A DNA stretch of 32,195 nt from NCBI GenBank assembly GCA_008501635.1, contig QQUJ01000025.1, positions 1-32,195 of the forward strand, in the 5' to 3' direction. Position numbers and translations under genes: made by a program. Position 1 is the first letter of the stretch; each line of letters begins with the position of its first letter. The notes under the pieces were generated by a model. That model saw nothing but the letters and a program-made list of their open reading frames with translations. It did no database searches and was not told the DNA's origin. Source of the DNA: Pseudomonadota bacterium. GTDB lineage: Bacteria > Pseudomonadota > Gammaproteobacteria > QQUJ01. Positions 12,561-12,588 of the stretch are shown piece by piece.

Positions 12561-12588
12561 ATTTAACATAATATACATTATGCGCACT
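12561..12588 (-). other. dif: dif chromosome dimer resolution site (XerCD target)
   Basis: Read on the minus strand this is AGTGCGCATAA (XerC arm, 12588-12578), TGTATA (central hexamer, 12577-12572) and TTATGTTAAAT (XerD arm, 12571-12561). Compared from memory with E. coli dif, 27 of 28 bases are identical; only the first base of the XerC arm differs. The site lies between two convergent genes in non-coding sequence, where chromosomal dif sites are normally found. XerC and XerD recombine here, under FtsK control, to resolve chromosome dimers, so the window is at the replication terminus. Confidence 0.93.

What the first reader, a model, noticed from the sequence alone, without database searches (positions are those of the whole stretch)
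12561..12588. A dif site nearly identical to that of E. coli marks the replication terminus
The XerC arm, the TGTATA spacer and the XerD arm are all present in non-coding sequence between convergent genes; 27 of 28 bases equal the E. coli dif I recall. It places the window at the point of chromosome dimer resolution and gives a reference for replication direction. It also flags a hotspot for elements that integrate by XerCD. I see only one full site, so no dif-integrated element is evident here.
Basis: partly seen in the sequence, partly recalled or inferred. Interest (0 to 1): 0.8.

Follow-up and report, generated by a model that had tools for sequence, protein, structure and literature searches.

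The report
Ordinary chromosome dimer-resolution site (dif)
This is the single, standard 28-base "dif" site at which a gammaproteobacterium's XerC/XerD enzymes separate accidentally fused chromosomes before division; it is real and well supported but entirely expected for this class of bacteria.

Summary
Window 12561-12588, minus strand, reads AGTGCGCATAATGTATATTATGTTAAAT. That is 27/28 identical to E. coli K-12 dif, and the one difference is the outermost base of the XerC arm. It lies in a 204-bp gap between convergent genes. It is the only match within 3 mismatches in the 3.93-Mb, 98%-complete assembly; the next-best 28-mer on its 108-kb contig differs at 11 or more positions (10 for the site's own reverse complement). 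The same genome encodes XerC, XerD and an FtsK with the gamma domain. KOPS (GGGNAGGG) point towards the site 14:1 on this contig, but 16:16 in a far contig. GC skew is negative throughout the 95 kb to the right and disappears to the left. A near-identical site marks the skew switch in a relative held as one 2.92-Mb contig, and 54 of 94 same-class genomes carry a match. So this is a textbook dif. Dif marks the skew/segregation terminus and dimer resolution, not necessarily where forks stop. Only 12.6 kb is assembled to the left, so the skew switch is not resolved precisely. No XerCD-integrated element is present. Ordinary.

The parts
12561..12588 (-). dif site, AGTGCGCATAATGTATATTATGTTAAAT
   Evidence: 27/28 to E. 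coli K-12 dif; only copy in the assembly
12561..12571 (-). XerD-binding arm TTATGTTAAAT
   Evidence: identical to the E. coli XerD arm
12572..12577 (-). 6-bp central region TGTATA
   Evidence: identical to E. coli
12578..12588 (-). XerC-binding arm AGTGCGCATAA, one outermost base differs from E. coli (GGTGCGCATAA)
11333..12403 (+). left convergent neighbour: DsbA/thioredoxin-4 family protein
   Evidence: Pfam PF13462, PF01323
12608..14149 (-). right convergent neighbour: HDOD + GGDEF protein
   Evidence: Pfam PF08668, PF00990
2485..2492 (+). KOPS GGGNAGGG pointing to dif
10720..10727 (+). KOPS pointing to dif
15123..15130 (-). KOPS pointing to dif
16216..16223 (-). KOPS pointing to dif
16819..16826 (-). 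KOPS pointing to dif
17874..17881 (-). KOPS pointing to dif
24933..24940 (-). KOPS pointing to dif

Best explanation
The site is the chromosomal dif of this gammaproteobacterium. XerC and XerD bind the two 11-bp arms. At division, FtsK loads on KOPS, is steered along both arms to dif, and its gamma domain activates XerD. Two strand exchanges about the TGTATA centre then convert a chromosome dimer into monomers. Shown here: the site, its uniqueness, the encoded recombinases and translocase, and the converging KOPS polarity. Inferred from E. coli and other models: binding, order of cleavage and in vivo resolution.
For: 27/28 bases identical to K-12 dif, intergenic. Unique in 3.93 Mb. XerC over its curated cut-off (TIGR02224, 368 bits). 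XerD over its cut-off (TIGR02225, 390.6 bits), aligned end to end with E. coli XerD 1a0p with the R / K / HxxR / H / Y motifs conserved. FtsK with the gamma domain (PF09397, 96.8 bits), matching P. aeruginosa FtsK 2iut and the gamma-domain structures, including the conserved IGYNRAAR segment. KOPS 14 towards: 1 away on C25 versus 16:16 over the first 284 kb of C10 (counted), Fisher p = 0.004. All 6-kb blocks right of dif have negative skew; the local cumulative-skew maximum is at 14143, 1.6 kb from dif. Sampled points on other contigs keep one sign within each contig. The same 26-mer lies at the skew switch of G079, a relative held as one 2.92-Mb contig. 54 of 94 same-class genomes match, all but two with a single copy, and the reversed control gives 0.
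Against: The left 12.6 kb has net skew about 0, with its first 6 kb negative, so the switch is blurred there. The KOPS polarity is only marginally stronger than that of other G-rich octamers of the same composition on this contig (Fisher p = 0.08). The assembly is a draft of 30 contigs, so the position opposite oriC could not be checked.
Confidence: 0.97

Rival explanations
1. The site is a XerCD attachment site (attL/attR) or remnant left by a dif-integrating phage or IMEX rather than a plain dif.
For: Identical 26-mers occur in 48 stretches of viral contigs, so elements carrying the site (or viral contigs with host flank) exist.
Against: Only one full site in the genome and no second half-site on C25 within one mismatch of the XerD arm. 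No integrase or phage gene among the neighbours tested by Pfam. Both arms are canonical.
Confidence: 0.01
2. The contig is a plasmid or chromid with its own dif, not the main chromosome.
For: Chromids also carry dif (PMC5357621); the draft assembly does not prove linkage.
Against: It is the only dif in a 98%-complete genome, whose long contigs C10 and C18 (795 and 594 kb, holding xerC and xerD) carry none. C25 holds ordinary metabolic genes (molybdopterin oxidoreductase, moaA-like, ThiS/moaD-like, moaE, fdhD), and nearly all dif-bearing relatives have exactly one.
Confidence: 0.02

Closest known systems
E. coli K-12 dif
   Same: 27/28 bases, both arms, centre, intergenic position, XerC/XerD/FtsK encoded in the genome
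   Different: first base of the XerC arm A instead of G; different neighbouring genes (HDOD-GGDEF and DsbA-like, not hipA and yneL)
Gammaproteobacterial dif family (Carnoy & Roten; Kono et al. 2011, PMC3025954)
   Same: 28-bp architecture 11-6-11, single copy, skew-switch location, strict XerD arm
   Different: nothing beyond variation already seen in the class

Membership tests
chromosomal dif (XerCD type) | 28-bp site of 11-bp XerC arm, 6-bp centre, 11-bp XerD arm | tested here: met
chromosomal dif (XerCD type) | single occurrence per chromosome | tested here: met
   in a 98%-complete draft
chromosomal dif (XerCD type) | XerC and XerD encoded in the genome | tested here: met
chromosomal dif (XerCD type) | FtsK with gamma domain | tested here: met
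chromosomal dif (XerCD type) | located at the GC-skew switch | tested here: inconclusive
   negative on all 95 kb to the right; net 0 on the 12.6 kb available to the left; local maximum 1.6 kb away
chromosomal dif (XerCD type) | KOPS converge on the site | tested here: met
   14:1 on C25 versus 16:16 on C10; only 2 sites lie on the left side, and the excess over same-composition octamers is only suggestive (p = 0.08)
chromosomal dif (XerCD type) | XerCD binding and dimer resolution in vivo | not testable with these tools
   needs experiment

The most novel reading that the evidence does not exclude
The only unusual reading left open is that the blurred skew left of dif reflects a recent rearrangement or asymmetric arms, with replication ending away from dif as in P. 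aeruginosa PAO1-UW.
Probability: 0.05. Interest if true: 0.2.

Novelty: already known. Interest (0 to 1): 0.1.

Why it matters
It gives a reliable landmark for orienting this draft genome (the dimer-resolution and skew-switch end) and is one more case of near-invariance of dif across Gammaproteobacteria. It does not change any understanding.

Tried and rejected
The genome-contig scan with the HDOD-GGDEF neighbour found only one full-length relative from Gammaproteobacteria (L039, 46%), whose 7.7-kb contig has no dif, so the neighbourhood is not shown to be conserved. Rfam and tRNA scans of the window were empty. A third-codon-position skew test relied on a crude ORF choice that kept wrong-frame ORFs, so no weight is put on it. 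An integrated XerCD element was looked for and not found.

Full report
Observation. The minus strand of window 12561-12588 reads AGTGCGCATAATGTATATTATGTTAAAT, one mismatch from the 28-bp dif of E. coli, and no shuffle of the window gives such a match. The E. coli sequence was checked against the K-12 MG1655 record, where the exact dif is at 1590750-1590777 next to hipA. A blastn of the 48 bp around the site matches 5384 of 5426 complete E. coli genomes, with a median of one place per genome. The site sits in the 204-bp gap between a DsbA/thioredoxin-like gene ending at 12403 and an HDOD-GGDEF gene ending at 12608, which converge.

Uniqueness. The window is the first 32,195 bases of a 107,924-bp contig (C25) in a 30-contig, 3.93-Mb, 98%-complete assembly. 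A search with up to 3 mismatches finds only this copy, and the reversed control finds none. On C25 the next-best 28-mers have 11 or more mismatches, apart from the site's own reverse complement at 10. The XerD arm has no second copy within one mismatch, so no remnant of a XerCD-integrated element is visible.

Machinery. The genome encodes XerC (C10:76248-77117, over the curated cut-off), XerD (C18:519119-519985, over the cut-off) and one FtsK with the gamma domain (C29:40755-40937). XerD aligns end to end with the E. coli XerD crystal structure 1a0p, including the catalytic motifs. FtsK aligns with P. aeruginosa and E. coli FtsK through the gamma domain, including the IGYNRAAR segment. That this segment reads KOPS is my recollection of the gamma-domain/KOPS structures.

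Polarity. Right of dif, every 6-kb block to the end of C25 has negative GC skew (mean -0.039). The 12.6 kb to the left nets to zero (6-12 kb positive, 1-6 kb negative). The cumulative maximum is at 14143, 1.6 kb from dif, but hardly above the value at the contig start. In 30 overlapping pieces of 12.5 kb from C10 and C18 the skew was never zero or below (mean 0.051, minimum 0.006), so the left arm does not show a full-strength opposite skew. Other sampled contigs keep one sign throughout: C1, C5, C10, C18 positive (one C5 stretch only 0.003); C4, C6, C7, C29 negative at every sampled point, C14 at its single point. So no rival switch was seen in the samples; not every contig was sampled. KOPS point towards dif 14:1 on C25, whereas my count from the listing gives 16:16 for the first 284 kb of C10 (Fisher p = 0.004). 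Other G-rich octamers of the same make-up are also polarised on C25 (615:228 pooled), so the KOPS excess over composition is suggestive only (p = 0.08).

Relatives. Of 94 same-class genomes, 54 (the window's own genome included in the listing) have a match within 3 mismatches. Five others carry the identical 26-mer, and the reversed control has no hit in any. In G079, a relative held as one 2.92-Mb contig, the identical 26-mer lies where skew and KOPS polarity flip: +0.048 and +0.021 at 130-150 and 30-50 kb left, -0.0065 just left, -0.024 just right, -0.055 at 30-50 kb right; KOPS 3:0 on the left 20 kb and 0:3 on the right. Weak skew within about 20 kb of dif is therefore seen there too.

Interpretation. 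It is a standard XerCD dif. The literature adds one correction: in a survey of bacterial chromosomes the skew switch lies on average 13 kb from dif but 71 kb from the expected replication terminus, and in P. aeruginosa PAO1-UW the skew switch is within 15 kb of dif but 682 kb from where replication terminates (PMC6199493). Kono et al. [quoted passage not shown] So the site marks dimer resolution and the skew switch; that replication terminates exactly here is not shown.

Verdict. Real, correctly read by the first-stage reader, ordinary.

Noticed in passing
window 7279-8611: REP-associated tyrosine transposase (RAYT/TnpA-REP; PF01797, only solved match 4er8 TnpArep at 1e-44) at 7874-8434, flanked by six copies of a ~30-bp REP palindrome (GTCGGGTTACGCTGCGCTAACCCGAC...), with two inverted pairs (7791/7843 and 8521/8574) forming BIME-like units on either side of the gene.
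   Followed up: partly
window 144-4228 (-): Gene pair of a DEAD_2/Helicase_C_2 helicase and a FAN1-like VRR-NUC nuclease, in DNA of higher G+C (0.66-0.70) than the rest of the window.
   Followed up: no
relative G055, contig C1:158083 (+) and C1:187405 (-): Two dif-like sites 29 kb apart in inverted orientation in one genome, each with a changed XerC arm (ATCACATAA / ATCATATAA) and perfect centre and XerD arm; possibly an inversion or a XerCD-integrated element.
   Followed up: no
relative G050, contigs C50:2573 and C102:800: Two dif-like sites with different centres in one draft genome; possible second replicon, integrated element or contamination.
   Followed up: no
window 12561-12588 versus L016 (G079): Relative to the GC-skew direction dif is on the minus strand here and on the plus strand in G079, so dif orientation to the ori-ter axis is not fixed between these two genomes.
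   Followed up: partly
window 12582-12607: Small stem-loops abut or overlap the XerC arm (GCGCAC-TAAGG-GTGCGT; and a terminator-like GCGTCGATGATGC with TTATTCTTTC); a weak terminator for the convergent genes is possible, though shuffles give 0.4 such sites by chance.
   Followed up: partly
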